Shown one piece after another: positions 2,431 to 36,900 of a stretch of 64,000 bases of DNA. The stretch lies in contig OX359191.1 of NCBI GenBank assembly GCA_947172415.1, positions 62,001 through 126,000 of the forward strand, read 5' to 3'. Position 1 is the stretch's first letter. Each line of letters starts with the position of its first letter. The notes under the pieces were generated by a model that saw only the letters and a list, made by a program, of their open reading frames with translations, ran no database searches and had not been told where the DNA came from. This DNA is from Chondrosia reniformis (lineage: Eukaryota; Porifera; Demospongiae; Chondrillida; Chondrillidae). The translations under genes and the position numbers were made by a program.

Positions 2431-4561
2431 TATGAAGCTAATACTTGATGTCAGCATTCACAGACATGTATGAATCATTTCCAGAGAGTTTTAGAAATTT
2501 CAATTTTTGTTCATATTTGCCCTATCTCTCACCATACATTAACTTTGTGTTGGAGATTTTAATGTACATTAAGGGTCGTAACTCCATCAAGCAGCAAGAT
2601 GTGAAGCCAATACTTGATGTCAGCATTCACAGACAAGTATGAAACATTTGCAAAGAGTTTTAGAAGTTTCAATTTTTGTTCATAATTGCCCTATCTCTCA
2701 CCATACATTAATTTTGTATGTTAGATTTTAAAGTACATTAAGGGTCATAACTCCAACAAACAGCAAGATGTGAAGCCAATACTTGATGTCAGCATTCACA
2801 GACATGTATGAAACATTTCCAAAGAGTTTTAGAATTTTCAAATTTTGTTCATATTTGCCCTATCTCTCACCATACATTAACTTTGTGTTGGAGATTTTAA
2901 TGTACATTAAGGGTCGTCACTCCATCAAACAGTAATATGTGAAGCTAATACTTGATGTCAGCATTCACAGACATATATGAATCATTTTAAAAGAGTTTTA
3001 GAAATTTCAAGTTTTGTTCATATTTGCCCTATCTCTCACCATACATTAAACTTGTATGTTAGATTTTAAAGTACATTAAGGGTCGTAACTCCAAAAAACA
3101 GAAAGATGTGAAGCTAATACTTGATGTCAGCATTCATAGACATGTATAAAACATTTCCAAAGAGTTTTAGAAGTTTTAATTTTTGTTCATAATTGCCCTA
3201 TCTCTCACCATACATTAACTTTTGTGTTGGAGATTTTAATGTACATTAAGGGTCGTCACTCCATCAAACAGTAATATGTGAAACTAATACTTGATGTCAG
3301 CATTCACAGACATATATGAATCATTTTAAAAGAGTTTTAGAAATTTCAAATTTTGTTCATATTTGCCCAATCTCTCACCATACATTAAACTTGTATGTTA
3401 GATTTTAAAGTACATTAAGGGTCGTAACTCCAAAAAACAGCAAGATGTGAAGCTAATACTTGATGTCAGCATTCATAGACATGTATAAAACATTTCCAAA
3501 GAGTTTTAGAAGTTTTAATTTTTGTTCATAATTGCCCTATCTCTCACCATACATTAACTTTGTGTTGGAGATTTTAATGTACATTAAGGGTCGTCACTCC
3601 ATCAAACAGTAATATGTGAAACTAATACTTGATGTCAGCATTCACAGACATATATGAATCATTTTAAAAGAGTTTTAGAAATTTCAAGTTTTGTTCATAT
3701 TTGCCCTATCTCTCACCATACATTAAACTTGTATGTTAGATTTTAAAGTACATTAAGGGTCGTAACTCCAAAAAACAGCAAGATGTGAAGCTAATACTTG
3801 ATGTCAGCATTCATAGACATGTATAAAACATTTCCAAAGAGTTTTAGAAGTTTTAATTTTTGTTCATAATTGCCCTATCTCTCACCATACATTAATTTTG
3901 TATGGTAGATTTTAAAGTACATTAAGGGTCGTAACTCCAACAAACAGCAAGATGTGAAGCGAATACTTGATTTCAGCATTCACAGACATTTATGAAACAT
4001 TTCCAAAGAGTTTTAGAAGTTTCAATTTTTGTTCATATTTGCCCTATATATCTCTCACCATACATTAATTTTGTATGGTAGATTTTAATGTACATTAAGG
4101 GTCCTAACTTCATCAAACAGCAAGATGTGTAGCTAATACTGGATTTCAACATTCACAGACATTTATGAAACATTTTTAATGAGTAAAAGTTTCAATTTTT
4201 GTTCATATTTGCCCTATCTCTTCACCATACATTAACTTTGTATGGTAGATTTTAAAGTACATTAAGGGTCGTAACTCCAACAAACAGCAAGATGTGAAGC
4301 TAATACTTGATGTCAGTATTGACAGACATTTATGTAACGTTTCTAGAGAGTTTTAAAAGTATCAATTTTTTCATATTTGCCTTATATATCTCTCACCATA
4401 CATTAACTTTTTGTGGGAGATTTCAATGTACATTAAGGGTCGTAACTCCATCAAACAGTAAGATGTGAAGCTAATACTTGATGTCAGCATTCACAGACAT
4501 GTATGAAACATTTCCATTCAGTTTTAGAAGTTTCAAGTTTTGTTCATATTTGCCCTATCTC
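2431..4561. repeat. Satellite array 1, about 13 monomers of about 168 bp
   Basis: Direct tandem copies of an AT-rich monomer recognised by tacttgatgtcagcattcac near 2443, 2613, 2780, 2949, 3119, 3289 and onward. Monomers are more diverged than in array 2; later copies read gatttcag in place of gatgtcag. Together with the preceding spacer this forms a 3.4-kb unit. Confidence 0.95.
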
Positions 4562-23000: not shown

Positions 23001-24586
23001 GAGGGATGGTCCTTCCATCATAGAGGGGTGTGGCTGTTGGAGGGATGATCCTTCCATCGTAGAGGGGAGTGGCTGTTGGAGGGATGGTCCTTCCATCATA
23101 GAGGGGTGTGGCTGTTGGAGGGATGGTCCTACCATAGTGGAGGGGTGTGGCTGTTGGAGGGATGGTCCTACCATAGTGGAGGGGCGTGGCTGCTGGTGAA
23201 CATACCCACCAACTGGCATCCACCAGTGCAGAGGCCGGGGAAGCTGGTGGTGGGCCTGTTCCATGACAGGGTACGGGGAGAGCTGATTCAGGACGGCACT
23301 GTGGTCGGCCGGGGACAACACCACTCCGTGGCGACGCTGCCTCGGAATTGGACTGTTTAAGGAGTATTCGCTGTTGATTATTGGATGTTGAGTTAAAATG
23401 GGAGAACCCTGGTGATTTAGCGGAGATGCTAACATCTGTGTTGGTTGTACATAGTGCTCCCTTAGTGAAGGTCCAGGGCAGTTGTGTTGTCTGCTGCTGG
23501 TTGCACTTGGGAGTATGTCCTCCATCCTCCTCTCCTCCAGTGTCTCTCCCGTTGTACAAGACAAGTTGGCCGACTCAAGTACATTCTGATGCATTCTTGG
23601 CTGTAGGACCGGGGAACAGGCCAAGAGGCTCGGTGGGACCAGCACAGGAAACAGCGGTGCCCCATGAGGGGAGGGCGCTGGGGTTGCTGGGGAGAGACTA
23701 ACTGGAGCAGCCTTGCGTCTTCTGGCTTGCCTCACGGGTCTGAAGACACATCAAGAGATGTCAACCTCATACGTACATATGTATGTACGGTTCAGTAAAC
23801 TTACCTCTTAGATCTGTTGGAGCAAACTGGTTCCTTAGTACCTCCTCTAGCTGTCCTATTGGAAACACATGAGGGGGTTCCCCCAATCTCAGAGCTAGTA
23901 GTGGAGGTACCTGTAAGTGCAGTGAAGGGCTGGGATGTGTGGGGATTCCCCTCAGCTTCAGTGACAGAGGGCTGTTGTACTTTGGATTGAAATGCATTGA
24001 GGTCACTGGTACTTCTGTGATCAGACCTTGGGGAGGTGGATTGGGGGACATTTGGGGTGGAGTTCTTTTTGACTGCTTTTGTCTTACCCTTTTTAGACCT
24101 GTAAACACAACCACAGAAGACATACAGTGAAATGAAACTAAAACGGTTGGCTGTGATGAAGACCATTAAATGTGACACTGGATACTAAAATGTAACGCGA
24201 CTTTGTAGGTATTTCAGTTAATGAAATTGTGTGTGTTGAGTCATACATTATAACACCAGACACTATAACACACGCTCTTCATCATACGATGAGAGTAGCT
24301 ACTCAAAATGGTTGAGGAAGGGTCTGGCTAGACTTGCAAAATGACTTACTTTTGTGGCCAAAACAATAAAATATTGTAACTTATACACGTTACATCACTG
24401 AAGCCACCACCGATCCGTATCTTCCTACTACAAGACACTTACATGGACAACCAAAAGAGATTACTGTACGTACCTTGAAACCGACCGTCTAATGACACTA
24501 GATCTTCGTTCTCTCTCCTCCAAAGACACCTTACTCTTCGGAGCGTCTTGTTCAAAATCGTTCCTTCTCTTACAGCGCGATGCCAT
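20082..24586 (-). CDS. RING-H2 E3 ubiquitin ligase candidate with SUMO-interacting motif
   Basis: Exons: 24586-24474, 24098-23805, 23739-22011, 21912-21818, 21623-21485, 21180-21135, 20893-20842, 20739-20634, 20123-20082. All phases close to 871 residues. The last exons encode a RING-H2 domain: CTICLADYVKGED, then CKHKYHREC, then CPQC eleven residues after the last Cys of the central block, giving all eight zinc ligands in canonical order. It is preceded by GLNKEALDQLKVYKF, a typical pre-RING helix. The large exon has a hydrophobic-acidic SUMO-interacting motif, VVVLSDDSEEE (about 22250-22280), then LARRLQMEEYD. N-terminal exons are basic and Ser/Thr-rich (SKKGKTKAVKK), suggesting a nuclear protein. 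By analogy with RNF4/RNF111 it may be a SUMO-targeted ligase; orthology is not claimed. About 16 repeats of 13 residues fill the middle. Confidence 0.9.
20925..21125. repeat. Minisatellite, gggaggggccctgcatgt
   Basis: About 10 copies of an 18-bp GC-rich unit inside a RING-gene intron. Each unit contains the palindrome ggggcccc or its variant. Confidence 0.93.
22555..23190. repeat. Coding minisatellite (39/42-bp units) in the RING gene
   Basis: About 16 in-frame units of 39 bp, three of them 42 bp through one extra CAG-type Gln codon. On the minus strand they encode LQQPRPSTIEGPS with variants (H for R, M or L for I, S for P). The plus strand reads gaggggcgtggctgttggag. Unit lengths are multiples of three, so copy number can change without breaking the protein. 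Confidence 0.95.
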
Positions 24587-24995
24587 CCTTCTTGTTGAAT
24601 GGTTCAGTGAATACGACTATTCAATTGCCTACTCCGTAGAAAGTACCGCAAAACGAAACTACAGCAAGACGAACCGTTGATATGGTTACCATTTTAAATT
24701 TAAATTGACTCACTTTTAATTCTCAACTAAACAGATTGTTCTTTAATTTTAAATATCTCTATCCTAAACCAATCTCAGCGAATAAGTGAATTCCTCATAC
24801 GCAGACATTGGTATTTGAAGTAGTAGCTGTCACAACGCCATTTTTCAATGACGTCATCATGTGGCTATGTAGCCAATAGTGTGTTTATGGTAGAGTACAA
24901 TACATATGGCGTATACAGTCTTAAAATGCAATATGCATTAGTATAAAATTAAAAGGGTATACATTATAAAATATCAGTGATTCGGTCAGTGAAAA
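24587..24995. promoter_or_regulatory. RING gene 5' region and Twinkle 3' UTR
   Basis: 409 bp between the RING-gene start codon and the Twinkle stop codon, both genes on the minus strand. A CRE-like tgacgtcatcatg lies near 24850. The Twinkle 3' UTR must end here; no single polyadenylation signal stands out. Confidence 0.45.
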
Positions 24996-27900
24996 TCAGT
25001 CATCTTCGTCTAGTAGTTCTATCATTTCTTCCACTTCTTCTTCAATTGTCCTAACTACTCCAGTAGCGACAGTAGTTGGGCTAACACTGTTGGTCTGGTT
25101 GACAGCTAAACTGTTCCCCTTGTACCTGCTGTTGGACCTGAGTGAGGGCTGCTTGACAGCAAATGAAAACTGCTGACGGTCACCAGAAAATCCTTCAGCT
25201 GTGGGTGGAGTTGCTGAGTCAGCAGATGGCTGGGTTGCTACTCCTTTCAGTGTTGAGCCCAAGGACTTCCACCTGCTACCCAGCTTTGGGGTGCTTGGGG
25301 TGACCTTTGACCTTTCTGGAGCGGTATCTATAGATTCCTTTGCCTTGTACATTCCAGAGAGAGTTAGTGATTCATAATCAAAGGAGAGTTGGATCTTTCC
25401 CAAGTCTCCATCAAACCTGTTCTTTGTCACCTAACATAGCACAGAGGGACAGAGAGAGGGAGGGTGGGAGGGAGGAGAGAGGAAGAGGAAGGGAGAGGGA
25501 GAGAGAGGGAGAAGAGAGGGAGGGTGGGGGGTAGGAAATGGAGGGAGGGAGAAGGGGAGAGGGAGGGAGAGGGAGAAGAGAGGGAGGGTGGGGGGTAGGA
25601 AATGGAGGGAGGGAGAAGGGGAGAGGGAGGGAGAGAAGGGGAGAGGGAGGGAGAGAGAAGGGGAGAGGAGATACAGACTGAAATATGAGGAGGGCAATAC
25701 ACATTTAGTCAATAAACAAGTTATTGTTCTAAATGCAAAACCAGTTTATAGAACCAGTTCACTGGACACACAAAACCACTCAATACAGTGACTGTCAAAC
25801 TAGAGTACACAAAATGAATGATGGGGCTACACTCAAGACCTGTTGAACTGATTGGCAGGTTACCTAGGCAACAAGTGGCTAACCTGAAGGTACTTTCCCC
25901 TTCCAGGAGGCCTTTGAAGTATAAGTATGTTGTCAGACTCCTGACTTGCCTTGGCTGTGCCAAATATGGAAGCAGTCTGGAGCTCTATGTTGTCATCTTC
26001 CTAATATACAAACAATGACAGTATTACATGTATAAATTGGCTCACCACCAAATGTATACCTTTCTGGGGTGTATCACCACGGTAACGTGAACATTTCTGG
26101 ATGAGGCAAACTTTCTAAATTCTGCTATTGCTTGATTTTGTATGGTAAATCGATCTGCGAAACTTTACAAAAAATTCAAATTATCAACTATTATAAACAC
26201 CCATTTATAAGCACACTTATTACAGGGTTATCCTCTTTCTCTGTATATTCAAACTCACTTAAGTGTACTTCCAGTCATGAACTGCAGATTGTCTATAATG
26301 ACATGTCTGATATCGTACACATAAGCTGCATGAGACATGGCCTGGTGGTGGAGTGGAATAAGAGGGGGTTCCCCTAATGACATCATCCACACAATTATTG
26401 TAAAATGGTGACATACTTCAATGACTGTGAAAATGTCTTCTGCTCCGTGGAATGACATAAAGTACATCGGAATGTGTTCCATCTTGTCCGCCCAAAAGTG
26501 AAACTTGTCCAAATGTTTTTCCAAATTCATTCTAAATAATTATAACTAATTTACCTGCACTTTCCTGCATCTTACCTGATATTTACTTACCTACCTAATA
26601 TACACACTTACCTACCCAATATACACACTTACCTACCCCATCTGATATACATACTTACCTACCCCATCTGATATACACACTTACCCAATATACACACTTA
26701 CCTACCCCATCTGATATACACACTTACCTACCCCATATACACACTTACCCAATATACACACTTACCTACCCCATATACACACTTACCTACCCCATATACA
26801 CACTTACCTACCCCATATACACACTTACCCCATATACACACTTATCCAATATACACACTTACCTACCCCATATACACACTTACCTACCCCATGTACATTA
26901 CTTACCCCATATACACACTTACCTACCCCATGTACATTACCTACCCCATATACACACTTACCTACCCCATATACACACTTACCTACCCCATATACACACT
27001 TACCCAATATACACACTTACCCTGATAACTGACGCATCATAATCTTTGCCAGTCGAACATTCTTGATTTCAAAGCTCCCCCACAAGGTAGCTACCTGGAG
27101 AGAGTTACAGTAAACAGCTCTCAAACTCCAAGTTACTATGACCATATATATAGAGCTAATTAAAATATTCTATCTTAATTACTTATTAAGCTAAACTTTT
27201 ATTTAATCTCAAAAGCTTAAGGCCCGTACTGTGTGGCTCACTAGGTGTGTGAGCTACCTTCAGCCTCAAATAATGTCCATTCCATCAATATAGAGTCCTG
27301 TATGACTGGTCTATAACAAGTTCATTAGCTGCTAGTGACTACTGACATCCACTGATATGCTAGTTCAAGTTCAAAAGCCTCTCAAATCAACTGGAGGCAG
27401 CCATTTAAACAGACAAAACACTTAATTGCCAGCATGACACACTGTTTACATTGGACTGGTAAAGCCGTCAGCCTGACGGAGTGTACTGAACCCCAGTCCA
27501 AAAATAACAAAGTTACCATGACAACACTGTAAACAATGACCTGATCCCTTACTAAACACACCTCTTATTTGAGCTATACACACCCAGCTTCACAGGAGGT
27601 GTGTAGCATTACCATATTTGGAGGCAGCTCATTTAAAGGCTGACGTACTCAGAGGAGAAGCCAATCAGAGAGTGAGATGCACAAAGAGGAATACCCTACT
27701 TATCATAGCTCCTCCTCCTTTAGCCACCAACCAATCAAAGAACACAGCTAACGGAAGACACGTGAGCTGTAAACTACGTCAGAGATTTTCTTTGTAAAAA
27801 GGTGAGTTCCAACTAACTACACTACTTTGAGCAGAAACAACACTTTGAAGGAGAAAGAGCTACTTATTAGAAAGAATGAGTTCTAAAGTAAGAGATAATT

Positions 27901-30900
27901 AATATAATGTCAAACTAAACAGCTCCTGGGCCTTCACTTCTACTATTTTGCTACTTTCAGTCTTCAAAGAATGTAAATGTTGATAGTAATCCGGAACTGA
28001 ATAATGCTAGTGCTAGAGTGCCAACCACATCTGGTGCTTCCTCCCAACCCAACCCCATAGGGGTGGGGTCACAAGTGGTAAGACACAAGTAGGCCAGGGG
28101 AGGGCTGGGGCGAGGAGGTGGGAGCTATTCTTCTTAAAATGATGAAACTTTTGAGATCAAAAATCGTTTTACATAATTAACTTTAAAACCAAAGGCAAGG
28201 CTAATGACTACAACACTTCATTGTTCAAAATGTGACTACATTACTACTGACTACACTGACTTGTAGGGGCAGATTTATAGCTGCTTCTCAGAGCAGACAG
28301 CCTCAAGAAATGTCCAGTTTACTTGTGGACACTGGCACTACATATCTGAAAATGAAACGTACTCAGCAAGATGTGGGAATTGTTACCGAGATGATAACCA
28401 CCAGAACCCCTCCCATCGTACAGATGGAGTGAAGCCACAGTACCAGTAGTTGTCCAGACACACTTTGAAAGTCGAGTGAAACACAAACTAGGTTTAGCTG
28501 TGTGATTTAGTATATCTTTAGGCTTCCAGTAACCTCCTGGTACACTTAGTAGAATATAGACTTGTAATCATTTCAAAGTGTGACATTATAAAGAAACTTT
28601 CTGTAATTTATATTCTGCATGTAATATCAAGTGATGCACTACCTCTCTGAGCTAAAAGAGATGATATTTAATCTTATATCACTGAGTTACTCACATCACC
28701 AAAGATATAGTCTTAGTGTAGCAGAGTTACTGGGACTGAATGAGAAAAGAAAGTTACGTTTAATATACTTGATAGACTTGCTGATGTAAAACTGAGATAA
28801 TGTCAAAATCGGTCTGCTTACTCTAGCTCCTCCAACCCTCTCCCCAGCCCTTCCATCTCAGGTGTACTCAGTGTTACCTCTTCCCTCACTTGCTCATTTG
28901 TAGGTTAGAGAACAGTCTGTGTGTTCTGAGTGTCACCAGCTGCAAAATACATCCAACCTCACCACTATACAGTACACTTGCAAGTGCTATCGGATCCTCT
29001 GTCCGTCTTGTGAGGAACGGACCAAATCTAAAGACTACTGCACTATTCACAGGATGGAGGGGAGACTGGATTTTGATCAGATACTCAGTGCACTCAAGAA
29101 GACTTGGTGAAATGACTTGAAAGTTTTTTTAATTATTTTTTTTGTCATTTGTTATGCAGAAATGAATTTTATAAGCATCTTGTTAACTACATTCATAGCA
29201 CACCTCCAGTGTATTAGTGACTGCTAGCCAGTTTGCCGCAGCTAGTAGCGTGCTCTTAGGGGAATTCCTTGAGCTATACCTCTTCCTAGAATAGGACACA
29301 CCCACCTTTACAGGAGGTGTGTAGCATTACCATATTTGGAGGCAGCTCATTTAAAGGCTGACGTACTCAGAGAAGAAGCCAATCAGAGAGTGAGACGCAC
29401 AGAGAGGAATACCCTACTTATCATAGTTCCTCCTCCTTTAGCCACCAACCAATCAAAGGACACAGCTATCGGAAGACACGTGAGCTGTAAACTACGTCAG
29501 AGATTTTCTCTGTAAAAAGGTGAGTTCCAACTAAACTACACTACTTTGAGCAGAAACAACACTTTGAAGGAGAAAAGAGCTATTTATTAGAAAGAATGAG
29601 TTCTAAAGTAAGAGATAATTAATATAATGTCAAACTAAACAGCTCCTGGGCCTTCACTTCTACTATTTTGCTACTTTCAGTCTCTAAAGAATGTAAATGT
29701 TGATAGTAATCCGGAACTGAATAATGCTAGTGCTAGAGTGCCAACCACATCTGGTGCTTCCTCCCAACCCAACCCCATAGGGGTGGGGTCACAAGTGGTA
29801 AGACACAAGTAGGCCAGGGGAGGGCTGGGGAGAGGAGGTGGGAGCATCAGCCGAGATGAAGCTATTCTTTTTTATAAAAAAATCAAAAAGGTTAAAATTT
29901 TATAAACTATCACAAAAATGTTTTATATACTTAATTTGATAAAACTGTAATCTAAAAACTACTATAAAATGTGACTGTATTACTCAGTATCCAAAAACAT
30001 ATGTTAATGGTACTGACTACACTGACTTGTGCAGAGCTGCTTCTCAGGCAAGAAAGGCGCAAGTCTTGTCGAGTTTGATTGTGGAAAATGGCACTGCGTA
30101 ACTGAAGATGAAAAGTACTCAGTACAATGTAAGGACTGTGTCAGTAAGGAGAACCACCAGGACCCTCAGGACCAGAACCATGACTATTGTACATATGAAG
30201 TGCAGTTAAAGTACAAGTAGATGTCCAGTCTGGACTGAGGGACACACTTTGAAAGTCGAATGAAACACAAACTAGGTTTAGCTGTGTGATCTAGTATATC
30301 CTTAGGCTTCCAGTAACCTCCTGGTACACTTAGTAGAATATAGACTTGTAATCATTTCAAAGTGTGACATTATAAAGAAACTTTCTGTAATTTATATTCT
30401 GCATGTAATATCAAGTGATGCACTACCTCTCTGAGCTAAAAGAGATGATAATTAATCTTATATCACTGAGTTACTCACATCACCAAGGATATAGTCTTAG
30501 TGTAGCAGAGTTACTGGGACTGAATGAGAAAAGAAAGATACATTTAATATACTTGATAGACTTGCTGATGTAAAACTGAGATAATGTCAAAATCGGTCTG
30601 CTTACTCTAGCTCCTCCAACCCTCTCCCCAGCCCTTCCATCTCAGGTGTACTCAGTGTTACCGCTTCCCTCACTTGCTCATTTGTAGGTTAGAGAACAGT
30701 CTGTGTGTTCTGAGTGTCACCAGCTGCAAAATACATCCAACCTCACCACTATACAGTACACTTACAAGTGCTATCGGATCCTCTGTCCGTCTTGTGAGGA
30801 ACGGACCAAATCTAAAGACTACTGCACTATTCACAGGATGGAGGGGAGACTGGATTTTGATCAGATACTCAGTGCACTCAAGAAGACTTGGTGAAATGAC

Positions 30901-33900
30901 TTGAAAGTTTTTTATTTATTTTTTGTTATTTGTTATGCAGAAATGAATTTTATAAGCATCTTGTTAACTACATTCATAGCACACCTCCAGTGTATTAGTG
31001 ACTGCTAGCCAGTTTGCCGCAGCTAGTAGCGTGCTCTTAGGGGAATTCCTTGAGCTATACCTCTTCCTAGAATAGGACACACCCACCTTTACAGGAGGTG
31101 TGTAGCATTACCATATTTGGAGGCAGCTCATTTAAAGGCTGACGTACTCAGAGGAGAAGCCAATCAGAGAGTGAGACGCACAGAGAGGAATACCCTACTT
31201 ATCATAGCTCCTCCTCTTTTAGCCACCAACCAATCAAATTGTAATACTATTAGAAATCGTGGGCTGTAAGCTACGTCAGAGATTTTCTTCGTAAAAAGGT
31301 GAGTTCCAACTAATTAAGCTACTTTGAACAGAAATCACTAAGAACGGGAGAGAAGAGAAGATGAGCGGAAAGGTAATTGAAATTACAGTGATCAGACCAT
31401 CCGATCCATTCCCATCTCCTCCCAAATGTCTCACTGTTCCCTCTGCAGGACAACAGAGCCAACATTGACACTGAGGAGCAGCAGCTAAATACTGTAGGTT
31501 GGCAGGACAGCAGTGGTTGACATGTTCCTTACTCTTTCCTCTCTCCACTTGTAGAGCTGTGAGACCTCCAGCTCCTCCACTCCTGAGACCCCCTCCCAGC
31601 CTCCTATAACTGTGGGGGGCCCTCAGGGGGCACTTGGGGTAAGATGCACTGACATATAGGCACACAGTTAAGGTAAGGCTGATGAGAAGAGGGAGGCTGA
31701 TGAGAAGAGGGAGGCTGATGAGAAGGGGAGTGGCTGATGAGAAGGAGAGTGGCTGATGAGAAGGGGAGTGGCTGATGAGAAGGAGAGTGGCTGATGAGAA
31801 GGGGAGTGGCTGATGAGAAGGGGAGTGGCTGATGAGAAGGGGAGTGGCTGATGAGAAGGGGAGTGGCTGATGAGAAGGGGAGTGGCTGATGAGAAGGGGA
31901 GTGGCTGATGAGAAGGGGAGTGGCTGATGAGAAGGGGAGTGGCTGATGAGAAGGGGAGTGGCTGATGAGAAGGGGAGTGGCTGATGAGAAGGGGAGTGGC
32001 TGATGAGAAGGGGAGTGGCTGATGAGAAGGGAGTGGCTGATGAGAAGGGGAGTGGCTGATGAGAAGGGGAGTGGCTGATGAGAAGGGAGTGGCTGATGAG
32101 AAGGGGAGTGGCTGATGAGAAGGGGAGTGGCTGATGAGAAGGGGAGTGGCTGATAAGAAGGGGAGTGGCTGACCATTATGTGCTTGATAATACTGTCACT
32201 GATTTGTAGAAGAAAAGCTGTTTCTCCAACAAGACTGATACCACTTATGAAAAGTTTACTTGCGGACACTATCACTACCTGGCTAACTGTGAGAGGGAAG
32301 GGGCAAGATGTTCCAACTGTGACCAGACTCATGGTCACAACTATGACCCCTCCCATCGTACAGATGGGGTGAAGCAACAATAACAAGTAGTTGTCCAGTG
32401 GACCGAGGGACACACTTTGAAAGTCGAGTGAAACACAAATTAGGTTTAGCTGTGTGATCTAGTATATCTTTAGGCCTCCAGTAACCTCCTGGTACACTTA
32501 GTAGAATATAGACTTGTAATCATTTCAAAGTGTGACAATATAAAGAAACTTAGTATTCAAGCGATCTGCTGCCTATTTGCACCATAGAGATGATAGCGAA
32601 TGCTGTACAGTGAATCTTAAGAATCTGGTAAATTCCCTGCATTATTAATCTGTTACCTACAATGAAATGGCCACGCCCCCAGCTATGTGGCCACGCCCCC
32701 ATCTTACCCCTTGGCTGCAGAGGTCCAGAGACAGCTCGCTCATCACTGTGGTCTTGCCACTTCCTGTTGGTCCAGTGAAGATGCTCAACTCGCCAAGTCT
32801 GTGTCCCTTCAAGATGGAGGTCAGCCCCGGAAACCTCTTCCACTGCAGCACACACAAATAGACTGAACAACAGTCACTAGAAAAGTATACACTTACAACT
32901 CTAATATTATAAACAATACAATATCTCTTTTGGTATATAAGGTGTTAGTACTACACGTATGCAGTGCAGGGCATACCTTAGTACCAGCAACATGATCCAC
33001 ATCAGCTAGTTCACTGTACACGTCATCTCTCAACTGCAATTATACACAGAACGTTGCACAATATAATTATGATACACCCTTGTATTAGAGCCCATGCCAC
33101 ATATTAGAGCCCTTGCCACATATTAGAGCACATGCCACATATTAGGGCCCATGCCACATATTAGGGCCCATGCCACATATTAGAGCCCATGCCACATATT
33201 AGAGCCCATGCCACATATTAGAGCACATGCCATATATTAGACCCCATGCCACATATTAGAGCCCATGCCACATATTAGAGCCCGTGCCACATATTAGAGA
33301 TCAGGCTTCTTATCAAAATCCTTACCTGCTGAAAATTGAGAATCCTATTGTGGGAAAATGGCCGTGCATCCTGAATGATCTTGTTTAAGTCCAAACCTTT
33401 GTTCATTGCATCCACTGCACTTCCAAACTTACTCGAATAGGACTCATCCAAGCTTCTACACAGACAGTCACACACAAGTCAGTTGGAAACCAAACTACAC
33501 TCCAATACCATACACTTCACCACACACACCCTCACCACACCATAGTACACTTCACCACACACACCCTCACCACACACACCCTCACCACACCATAGTACAC
33601 TTCACCACACACACCCTCACCACACACACCCTCACCACACCATAGTACACTTCACCACACCATAGTACACTTCACCACACCATAGTACACTTCACCACAC
33701 ACACCCTCACCGCCCATAGTACACTTCACCACACACCCTCACCACACCATAGTACACTTCACCACACACACCCTCACCACATCATAGTACACTTCACCAC
33801 ACACCCTCACCACACCATAGTACACTTCACCACACACACCCTCACCACACCATAGTACACTTCACCACACACCCTCACCACACCATAGTACACTTCACCA

Positions 33901-36900
33901 CACACACCCTCACCACACCATAGTACACTTCACCACACACCCTCACCACACCATAGTACACTTCACCACACACCCTCACCACACCATAGTACACTTCACC
34001 ACACACCCTCACCACACCATAGTACACTTCACCACACACCCTCACCACACCATAGTACACTTCACCACACACACCCTCACCACACCATAGTACACTTCAC
34101 CACACACCCTCACCACACCATAGTACACTTCACCACACACACCCTCACCACACCATAGTACACTTCACCACACACCCTCACCACACCATAGTACACTTCA
34201 CCACACCATAGTACACTTCACCACACACACCCTCACCGCCCATAGTACACTTCACCACACACCCTCACCACACCATAGTACACTTCACCACACACCCTCA
34301 CTGCCCATAGTACACTTCACCACACACACCCTCACCACACCATAGTACACTTCACCACACACCCTCACCACACCATAGTACACTTCACCACACACCCTCA
34401 CCACACCATAGTACACTTCACCACACACACCCTCACCACACCATAGTACACTTCACCACACACCCTCACCACACCATAGTACACTTCACCACACCATAGT
34501 ACACTTCACCACACACACCCTCACCGCCCATAGTACACTTCACCACACACCCTCACCACACCATAGTACACTTCACCACACACCCTCACTGCCCATAGTA
34601 CACTTCACCACACACACCCTCACCACACCATAGTACACTTCACCACACCATAGTACACTTCACCACACACCCTCACTGCCCATAGTACACTTCACCACAC
34701 ACCCTCACTGCCCATAGTACACTTCACCACACACCCTCACCGCCCATAGTACACTTCACCACACACACCCTCACCACACCATAGTACACTTCACCACACA
34801 CACCCTCACCACACCATAGTACACTTCACCACACACACCCTCACCACACCATAGTACACTTCACCACACACACACTTCACCACACCATAGTACACTTCAC
34901 CACACACACCCTCACCACACCATAGTACACTTCACCACACACCCTCACTGCCCATAGTACACTTCACCACACACCCTCACTGCCCATAGTACACTTCACC
35001 ACACACCCTCACTGCCCATAGTACACTTCACCACACACCCTCACTGCCCATAGTACACTTCACCACACACACCCTCACCGCCCATAGTACACTTCACCAC
35101 ACACCCTCACCACACCATAGTACACTTCACCACACACCCTCACTGCCCATAGTACACTTCACCACACACACCCTCACCACACCATAGTACACTTCACCAC
35201 ACCATAGTACACTTCACCACACACCCTCACTGCCCATAGTACACTTCACCACACACACCCTCACCACACCATAGTACACTTCACCACACACCCTCACCGC
35301 CCATAGTACACTTCACCACACACACCCTCACCACACCATAGTACACTTCACCACACACACCCTCACCACACCATAGTACACTTCACCACACACACCCTCA
35401 CCACACCATAGTACACTTCACCACACACACACTTCACCACACCATAGTACACTTCACCACACACACCCTCACCACACCATAGTACACTTCACCACACACC
35501 CTCACTGCCCATAGTACACTTCACCACACACACCCTCACCACACCATAGTACACTTCACCACACACACCCTCACCACACCATAGTACACTTCACCACACA
35601 CACCCTCACCACACCATAGTACACTTCACCACACACACCCTCACCACACCATAGTACACTTCACCACACACACCCTCACCACACCATAGTACACTTCACC
35701 ACACACCCTCACCACACCATAGTACACTTCACCACACACACACTTCACCACACCATAGTACACTTCACCACACACACCCTCACCACACCATAGTACACTT
35801 CACCACACCATAGTACACTTCACCACACCATAGTACACTTTATCCTGCTCTGTGCCGTGTTACCTGACGAGATAGCATCTGTTGAGGTGCAGTTTCCTTG
35901 CAAACTGACTGGCTGTCTGTCTGGAGTGAACATCTCCATCAAACCAGAGGATAACCCTGTCAAACTGCTCCAAACGAGGTAGCAGCTCAGGAGGCAGGGT
36001 CGCTAGGCCCATCGGCAAGGTAACCACAGGCAGACCAGTGCTCTGGTGGACAGCCATTGCTGCAGTCTCGTGTGAGGTGATCACAAGCTAGTGGAAGGAA
36101 GTGCTGACACATGTCACAGAAGAGATATTCAAAGAATTCAAATTTACACTGACCAACTATAGCTAAGTGATCATATTCCATATTTGGTAATTATAGCTAA
36201 GTGATCATATTCCATATTTGGTAACTTTTAAGTTGTCCACCCCATATTTCTGTGAAATCACCTTAAATCTACAGCTATCCTTATAATATTGCATGCCAAT
36301 TAAAAATATAAATATAACAGTTTAGAATATTATCTACATGTATAGATGTGAAATTTGCTAATAATGGTCATGAACACCTTGTTACTAGTAGTATAGAGAT
36401 TACATACAAAGGGTCTATACTGAGTGGTTGAGAGGTGGTGGTCACTAATTGGAGTATGCTACCTGTTGGTCTGTCTCTTTCACCACATTCCACCCAAACA
36501 TCCCATAGTGTCCGTGTCTCGGATCCAGCAGCACTTGTCTGTCAGAGGGAGGAGCTATTGTCTCCACTTTGCACCTAAAGACCACACCCTCTCTGCCACA
36601 CCCCCCAGAGTACCACGGATACACAACACATGGCATGTCCTCTAGTGAACCTTGAACAGTCGGAAACTAGTACAGTATGTGGGAGAGAGAAGAGATGGTT
36701 AGAGGAGAGAAGGAGTGGGGTTAGGAGTGGAGATGGTTAGAGGAGAGAAGGAGTGGGGTTAGGAGTGGAGATGGTTAGAGGAGAGAAGGAGTGGGGTTAG
36801 GAGTGGGGATGGTCGGAGGAGTGGAGATGGTCGGAGGAGATGACTCACTTGACTCTTTGTCAGTCTAACAGAGTATTTATTGAACATTTCTTCTTTGATG

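What the first reader, a model, noticed from the sequence alone, without database searches (positions are those of the whole stretch)
27590..32540. Unrecognised three-gene family nested antisense in the Twinkle intron
Seen: three tandem small genes on the plus strand lie wholly inside one 5.6-kb intron of the minus-strand Twinkle gene. Each has a phase-0 exon chain, and each encodes a 101-111 residue protein with a short leader, a Ser/Pro-rich linker and a Cys/His-rich end (CFS ... CGHWH ... C-x-x-C ... H). I know no family with this layout. Inference: small zinc-binding proteins of lineage-specific function; transcription could interfere with Twinkle expression. This is the best candidate for an undescribed system in the window.
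Basis: partly seen in the sequence, partly recalled or inferred. Interest (0 to 1): 0.85.

Follow-up and report, generated by a model that had tools for sequence, protein, structure and literature searches.

The report
Tandem zinc-finger genes inside Twinkle intron
In a genome that appears to be that of the kidney sponge, three small tandem genes sit backwards inside an intron of the mitochondrial helicase gene Twinkle and seem to attach one of two different zinc-binding ends to a shared short leader; they belong to a small undescribed family with relatives elsewhere on the same chromosome.

Summary
Three head-to-tail units (U1-U3, 27588-32551) lie antisense in a 5,613-bp phase-0 Twinkle intron (27095-32707). 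Each has GT-AG, phase-0 exon chains giving 103-111 aa proteins. The reading needs widening in three ways.

(1) They are not an isolated trio. U1 and U2 carry a second candidate terminal exon (3b) after 3a. 3b has four relatives elsewhere on the same chromosome, each readable as a small gene with only phase-0 exons and a Cys-rich last exon, and resembles a tandem array of five longer Cys-rich exons.

(2) 3b is an eight-ligand, RING-like module close to the NOT4 (C4C4) RING spacing but with a final His. No Pfam cut-off is met. Exon 3a was found only in this locus and matched no known family.

(3) U1 and U2 differ at 1.8% of aligned sites outside, and 27.9% inside, a sharply bounded island (3' part of intron 2 plus exon 3a).

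Best reading: leader-sharing genes with alternative terminal exons, an older RING-like 3b and a younger, locus-specific 3a, homogenised around their 3a cassettes. Function (protein-binding adaptor or mini-E3) is inferred.

The parts
27095..32707 (-). Twinkle intron (phase 0) that holds the three units
   Evidence: exon edges; Twinkle identity
27588..27875 (+). U1 upstream block, promoter-like: CCAAT x2, TGACGT, ACGTCA, CACGTG, donor-like GGTGAGT
   Evidence: present at matching places in U2; U3 keeps all but CACGTG; motif roles are recalled, not tested
27876..27887 (+). U1 exon 1, MSSK
27961..28077 (+). U1 exon 2, Ser/Pro/Asn-rich linker, phase 0
28122..28462 (+). divergent island of U1 (intron 2 tail, exon 3a, first 3'UTR bases); edges set by eye from the alignment
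   Evidence: 27.9% mismatch to U2 against 1.8% outside
28267..28449 (+). U1 terminal exon 3a (CFS...CGHWH...CxxC...H), with stop
28904..29110 (+). U1 alternative terminal exon 3b, RING-like C-x2-C-x15-C-x-C-x4-C-x2-C-x9-C-x2-H, with stop
29306..29595 (+). U2 upstream block
29596..29607 (+). U2 exon 1, MSSK
29681..29797 (+). U2 exon 2
30035..30220 (+). U2 terminal exon 3a (CFS...CGKWH...CxxC...H), own acceptor position
30688..30894 (+). U2 exon 3b; one change from U1, which turns ligand 3 (Cys) into Tyr
31087..31360 (+). U3 upstream block (90% to U1 over about 250 bases)
31361..31372 (+). U3 exon 1, MSGK
31449..31493 (+). U3 exon 2
31555..31638 (+). U3 exon 2b, Ser/Pro-rich
31677..32172 (.). 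19-bp minisatellite, 26 copies, in the last intron of U3
32210..32383 (+). U3 terminal exon 3a (CFS...CGHYH...CxxC...H); no 3b found after it

Best explanation
Three tandem small genes of a family on one chromosome of this sponge were copied head to tail inside a Twinkle intron, each with its own upstream block. The ancestral gene made a short low-complexity leader joined in phase 0 to a RING-like eight-ligand zinc module (3b). In this locus a new terminal exon with its own stop (3a) arose in the intron before 3b. In U1 and U2 the choice of acceptor therefore yields either a 3a-ended or a 3b-ended protein with the same leader; U3 has lost 3b. Recent duplication or gene conversion keeps U1 and U2 alike except in the 3a cassette. 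The proteins most likely act as small zinc-stabilised protein-binding adaptors; the 3b form may be a mini-E3. Shown: sequences, frames, splice signals, paralogs, the island. Inferred: transcription, alternative splicing, order of gain and loss, copying mechanism, zinc binding, function.
For: Gene models with GT-AG and phase-0 junctions throughout. Four relatives with the same plan, and no match to one strict 3a-like pattern on the gene's strand of the loci read: C3:2110716-2110886, C3:2376173-2376325, C3:2378482-2378649, C3:2405144-2405299. 3b and the first halves of the five-exon array align with all eight ligands in 10 of 11 rows; profile comparison P 1.8e-4 for the single pair. NOT4-like spacing: single-pair P 3e-4 for A6 against the sponge's own CNOT4 RING, 0.005 for the 3b-type rows alone; BLASTP 5e-4 for the L012 relative alone. 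Island: 92 of 330 aligned sites differ inside, 25 of 1,373 outside. 3a dN/dS 0.46 (U1-U3) and 0.54 (U2-U3).
Against: No transcript evidence. 3a has only three sequences, all from one locus. The direct link from window 3b to its relatives is modest: U1 3b finds the 2.11-Mb gene at E 0.0011 and the 2.378-Mb gene at 0.011, and not the other two, which are reached through the 2.378-Mb exon (E 2.1e-22 and 4.4e-25). U1-U2 3a dN/dS is 1.42 and its exon divergence (27.6%) is like that of the adjoining intron tail (30.1%), so purifying selection is not visible in that pair. U2 3b has lost one ligand. With Cys/His held in place and the rest shuffled, 696 of 2,000 shuffles of U1 3b reach its CNOT4 score (207 for the L012 relative, 42 for the L013 one); full shuffles 61, 0 and 2 of 2,000. 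The likeness lies mainly in ligand spacing. Homology of 3a to 3b is not shown.
Confidence: 0.55

Rival explanations
1. Only the 3a chains are used. 3b in U1 and U2 is a relic of the ancestral terminal exon, silenced since 3a with its stop and 3'UTR was placed before it.
For: No 3b was found after U3. The single 3b change between U1 and U2 destroys a ligand.
Against: 3b is open in both units, with a pyrimidine-rich tract and TAG acceptor in phase 0, and differs at 1 of 207 sites against 8 of 441 in the non-coding stretch before it; the counts are small.
Confidence: 0.25
2. U1 and U2 are two haplotypes wrongly assembled in tandem, so the island would be allelic.
For: 1.8% divergence outside the island could be heterozygosity (inference; the paper passages seen give no such value).
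Against: The published assembly that this genome appears to be is from HiFi reads at about 70x (10.31 Gb in 0.80 million reads, mean about 13 kb by my division), and 4 haplotypic duplications were removed (passages of PMC12181767); such reads should span the 5-kb cluster (inference). A third, more different copy follows in the same orientation.
Confidence: 0.07
3. Decaying non-coding tandem repeats with chance open frames.
For: No RNA evidence; overall U1-U2 3a divergence is near neutral.
Against: Frame and all six Cys/His kept in 4 and 2 of 20,000 simulations (ligands chosen after looking). Four paralogs with intact phase-0 gene plans.
Confidence: 0.08
4. The 3a cassette is a diversifying recognition module: selection for new 3a variants resists homogenisation of the tandem copies, as in immune or allorecognition genes.
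For: Sharp island; 44.5 nonsynonymous against 7.5 synonymous differences in U1-U2 while framework Cys/His are kept.
Against: dN/dS 1.42 was not tested against 1, the intron tail diverges as much as the exon, and the other two pairs are below 1. No population data.
Confidence: 0.15

Closest known systems
NOT4/CNOT4 C4C4 RING (Pfam zf-RING_4, PF14570)
   Same: The L012 relative (x2, x13, x1, x4, x2, x10, x2) nearly repeats the ligand spacing of the sponge's own CNOT4 RING (x2, x13, x1, x4, x2, x11, x2); U1 3b is close (x15, x9)
   Different: Last ligand His; no Pfam cut-off met; none of 23 genome matches to PF14570 is a 3b exon; likeness rests mainly on spacing; array members space the middle ligands differently
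B-box and ZZ cross-brace zinc fingers (domain labels recalled)
   Same: Eight Cys/His in four pairs; weak PDB profile matches to a dystrobrevin chain (E 0.034) and a TRIM2 chain (E 0.05), both ahead of the best NOT4 chain (E 0.24)
   Different: None significant; partial coverage only
Nested antisense intronic genes
   Same: Complete small gene models on the opposite strand inside a host intron
   Different: Three tandem members of one family in one intron, two with a second candidate last exon; no expression data
RZ-type zinc finger of RNF213/ZNFX1
   Same: A GH-Y-x-Y ... C-x2-C likeness of 3a, noted from memory only
   Different: No RZ match of 3a in the Pfam scans or in the PDB search

Membership tests
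RING finger (NOT4 type, PF14570) | Eight ligands in RING order and spacing | tested here: met
   10 of 11 aligned rows keep all eight, the last being His; U2 3b lacks ligand 3; array rows space the middle ligands differently
RING finger (NOT4 type, PF14570) | Score above the curated Pfam cut-off | tested here: not met
   Best: L012 relative, PF14447 18.9 bits and PF14570 12.6 bits, both cut-offs 27; no RING match for U1 or U2 3b; no 3b among 23 genome matches
RING finger (NOT4 type, PF14570) | E2 binding and ubiquitin transfer | not testable with these tools
   Needs an in vitro assay
RING finger (NOT4 type, PF14570) | Cross-brace fold with two zinc ions | not testable with these tools
Any named family for exon 3a | Profile match in Pfam, NCBIfam, PHROGs or PDB | tested here: not met
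   Pfam: none for the U1 and U2 chains, PTPS E 0.12 for U3 3a, zf-LYAR E 0.12 for U2 3a alone, all below cut-off. NCBIfam: U1 FlgG E 0.0068, 16 bits against a cut-off of 350; U2 and U3 none. PHROGs: none, U1 only. PDB: none up to E 10
Nested intronic gene | Complete gene inside one host intron | tested here: met
   27588-32551 inside 27095-32707
Nested intronic gene | Own transcript | not testable with these tools
   RNA reads are not held

The most novel reading that the evidence does not exclude
A sponge family of leader-sharing mini-genes in which a swappable last exon (3a) is kept diverse between otherwise homogenised tandem copies while the alternative last exon (3b) is kept nearly constant: a small system for making variable zinc-finger recognition ends on a fixed leader.
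Probability: 0.15. Interest if true: 0.75.

Novelty: new variant of a known kind. Interest (0 to 1): 0.5.

Why it matters
If transcribed as read, this shows how a compact animal genome gains a new protein end: a new terminal exon placed before an old one gives two proteins from one leader, and tandem copies then differ almost only in that new exon. It also adds an undescribed RING-like small-protein family to an early-branching animal, with public RNA-seq ready to test it.

Tried and rejected
Homology of 3a to the array or to 3b: single-pair P 0.015 and 0.025, not accepted. 3a as a NOT4-like RING: P 0.0029 over 17 columns only; 131 and 1,025 of 2,000 full shuffles reach the scores of U1 and U3 3a, U2 not tested; not accepted. 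Weak own-genome matches on C4 (E 0.64) and C7 (E 7.62) were read and set aside because they lack the ligand set.

Relatives in other collections: none confirmed for 3a in viral contigs, none for 3b in genome contigs or viral contigs; 3a was not sought in genome contigs. No eukaryote genome other than this one was searched, so absence from other sponges is not shown. Rfam: no match at 24500-38300.

The pattern test (1 match in the window, 0 in 200 mononucleotide shuffles) used a pattern taken from these sequences and is only a sanity check. Literature: (3, 0 and 2 papers listed) showed nothing on such a family, judged from titles and abstract starts in the listings only.

Full report
Setting. 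The window is C3:62001-126000 of a 117,379,552-base genome in 15 contigs. This fits the kidney sponge Chondrosia reniformis (117.37 Mb, 14 chromosomal pseudomolecules plus a mitochondrial genome; abstract start in the listing, passages). The species is inferred from size and contig count. Minus-strand exon pieces match Twinkle in the PDB at 4.6e-78. The intron between LDLCSQG and [10 protein letters not shown] runs 27095-32707, 5,613 bp, phase 0.

The three genes. A self-comparison shows three head-to-tail units: U1 from 27588, U2 from 29306, U3 from 31087. In the five models every intron is GT-AG and every junction phase 0. The 3a-ended proteins are 103, 104 and 104 aa. U1 and U2 carry a second open terminal exon, 3b, also reachable in phase 0 from exon 2, giving 111 aa proteins. 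No 3b was found after U3. The upstream blocks share CCAAT, TGACGT, ACGTCA and GGTGAGT at matching places in all three, CACGTG only in U1 and U2; their role as promoters is inferred.

The island. U1 and U2 differ at 25 of 1,373 aligned sites outside and 92 of 330 inside an island that starts 44 bases into intron 2 and ends about 13 bases after the 3a stop; its edges were set by eye. Exon 3a (48 of 174) and the intron tail (43 of 143) diverge alike. Within 3a, U1-U2 shows 44.5 nonsynonymous and 7.5 synonymous differences (dN/dS 1.42); U1-U3 and U2-U3 give 0.46 and 0.54. Six Cys/His are invariant; random substitution keeps frame and ligands in 4 and 2 of 20,000 simulations for U1-U2 and U1-U3, with the ligand set chosen after looking. 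The simplest account is an old divergence of the 3a cassettes followed by recent homogenisation of their surroundings. Diversifying selection is possible but not shown.

The wider family. U1 3b finds the gene at C3:2.11 Mb at E 0.0011 and the one at 2.378 Mb at 0.011; the 2.378-Mb exon finds U1 3b back at 0.0016 and two close sisters at 2.376 and 2.405 Mb; the 2.11-Mb exon finds U1 3b at 9.3e-4. Each of the four reads as a complete small gene with three or four phase-0 exons, a short leader and a Cys-rich last exon, and a strict 3a-like pattern matched only the three window copies among the strands scanned. Next to the 2.11-Mb gene lies a tandem row of five longer Cys-rich exons. Their first halves align with 3b over all eight ligands; ten of eleven rows keep all eight, U2 3b having Tyr at the third. 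3a has no other copy in this genome in three searches up to E 10, which score only the best candidates.

What it resembles. The C-x2-C...C-x-C-x4-C-x2-C...C-x2-[H/C] spacing of 3b is that of the NOT4 RING, including the sponge's own CNOT4. Single-pair comparisons with that RING give P 3e-4 for all eleven rows, 0.005 for the six 3b-type rows, and BLASTP E 5e-4 for the 2.11-Mb exon. The NOT4 RING is a described C4C4 RING, and human CNOT4 an E3 ligase (passages of PMC4032980). But Pfam cut-offs are not met, no 3b exon is among 23 genome matches to PF14570, PDB matches are weak and led by other zinc domains or proteins, and with Cys/His fixed the likeness of U1 3b is not special. 3a has no known family in the libraries searched.

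Judgement. The genes are probably real and lineage-restricted as far as could be searched, which does not include other sponges. The notable part is the two candidate ends and the cassette-like divergence of one of them, not the nesting, which is a known and common arrangement (passages of PMC3192792). Transcription and splicing are the missing proof.

Noticed in passing
L012:9407-9700 and L015:555-791, 1254-1586, 2643-2969, 3802-4137 (C3:2.112-2.117 Mb): Tandem row of five Cys-rich exons (79-112 aa), each with two Cys-rich halves, no Pfam match above cut-off
   Followed up: partly
window 24500-38300: Minisatellites crowd the Twinkle gene, e.g. 33511-35840 (35 bp, 68 copies) and 37179-37916 (44 bp, 17 copies)
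   Followed up: no
L013:5317-5640 (-): Open frame with a YIGETGRSLQKRIYEH stretch that recalls a GIY-YIG endonuclease of a retroelement (label recalled, not tested)
   Followed up: no
L012:412-1962 (-): 517-aa protein-kinase-like open frame in the same fetched stretch as the L012 gene (label recalled, not tested)
   Followed up: no
window 30688-30894: U2 3b has Tyr at zinc ligand 3, its only difference from U1 3b
   Followed up: yes
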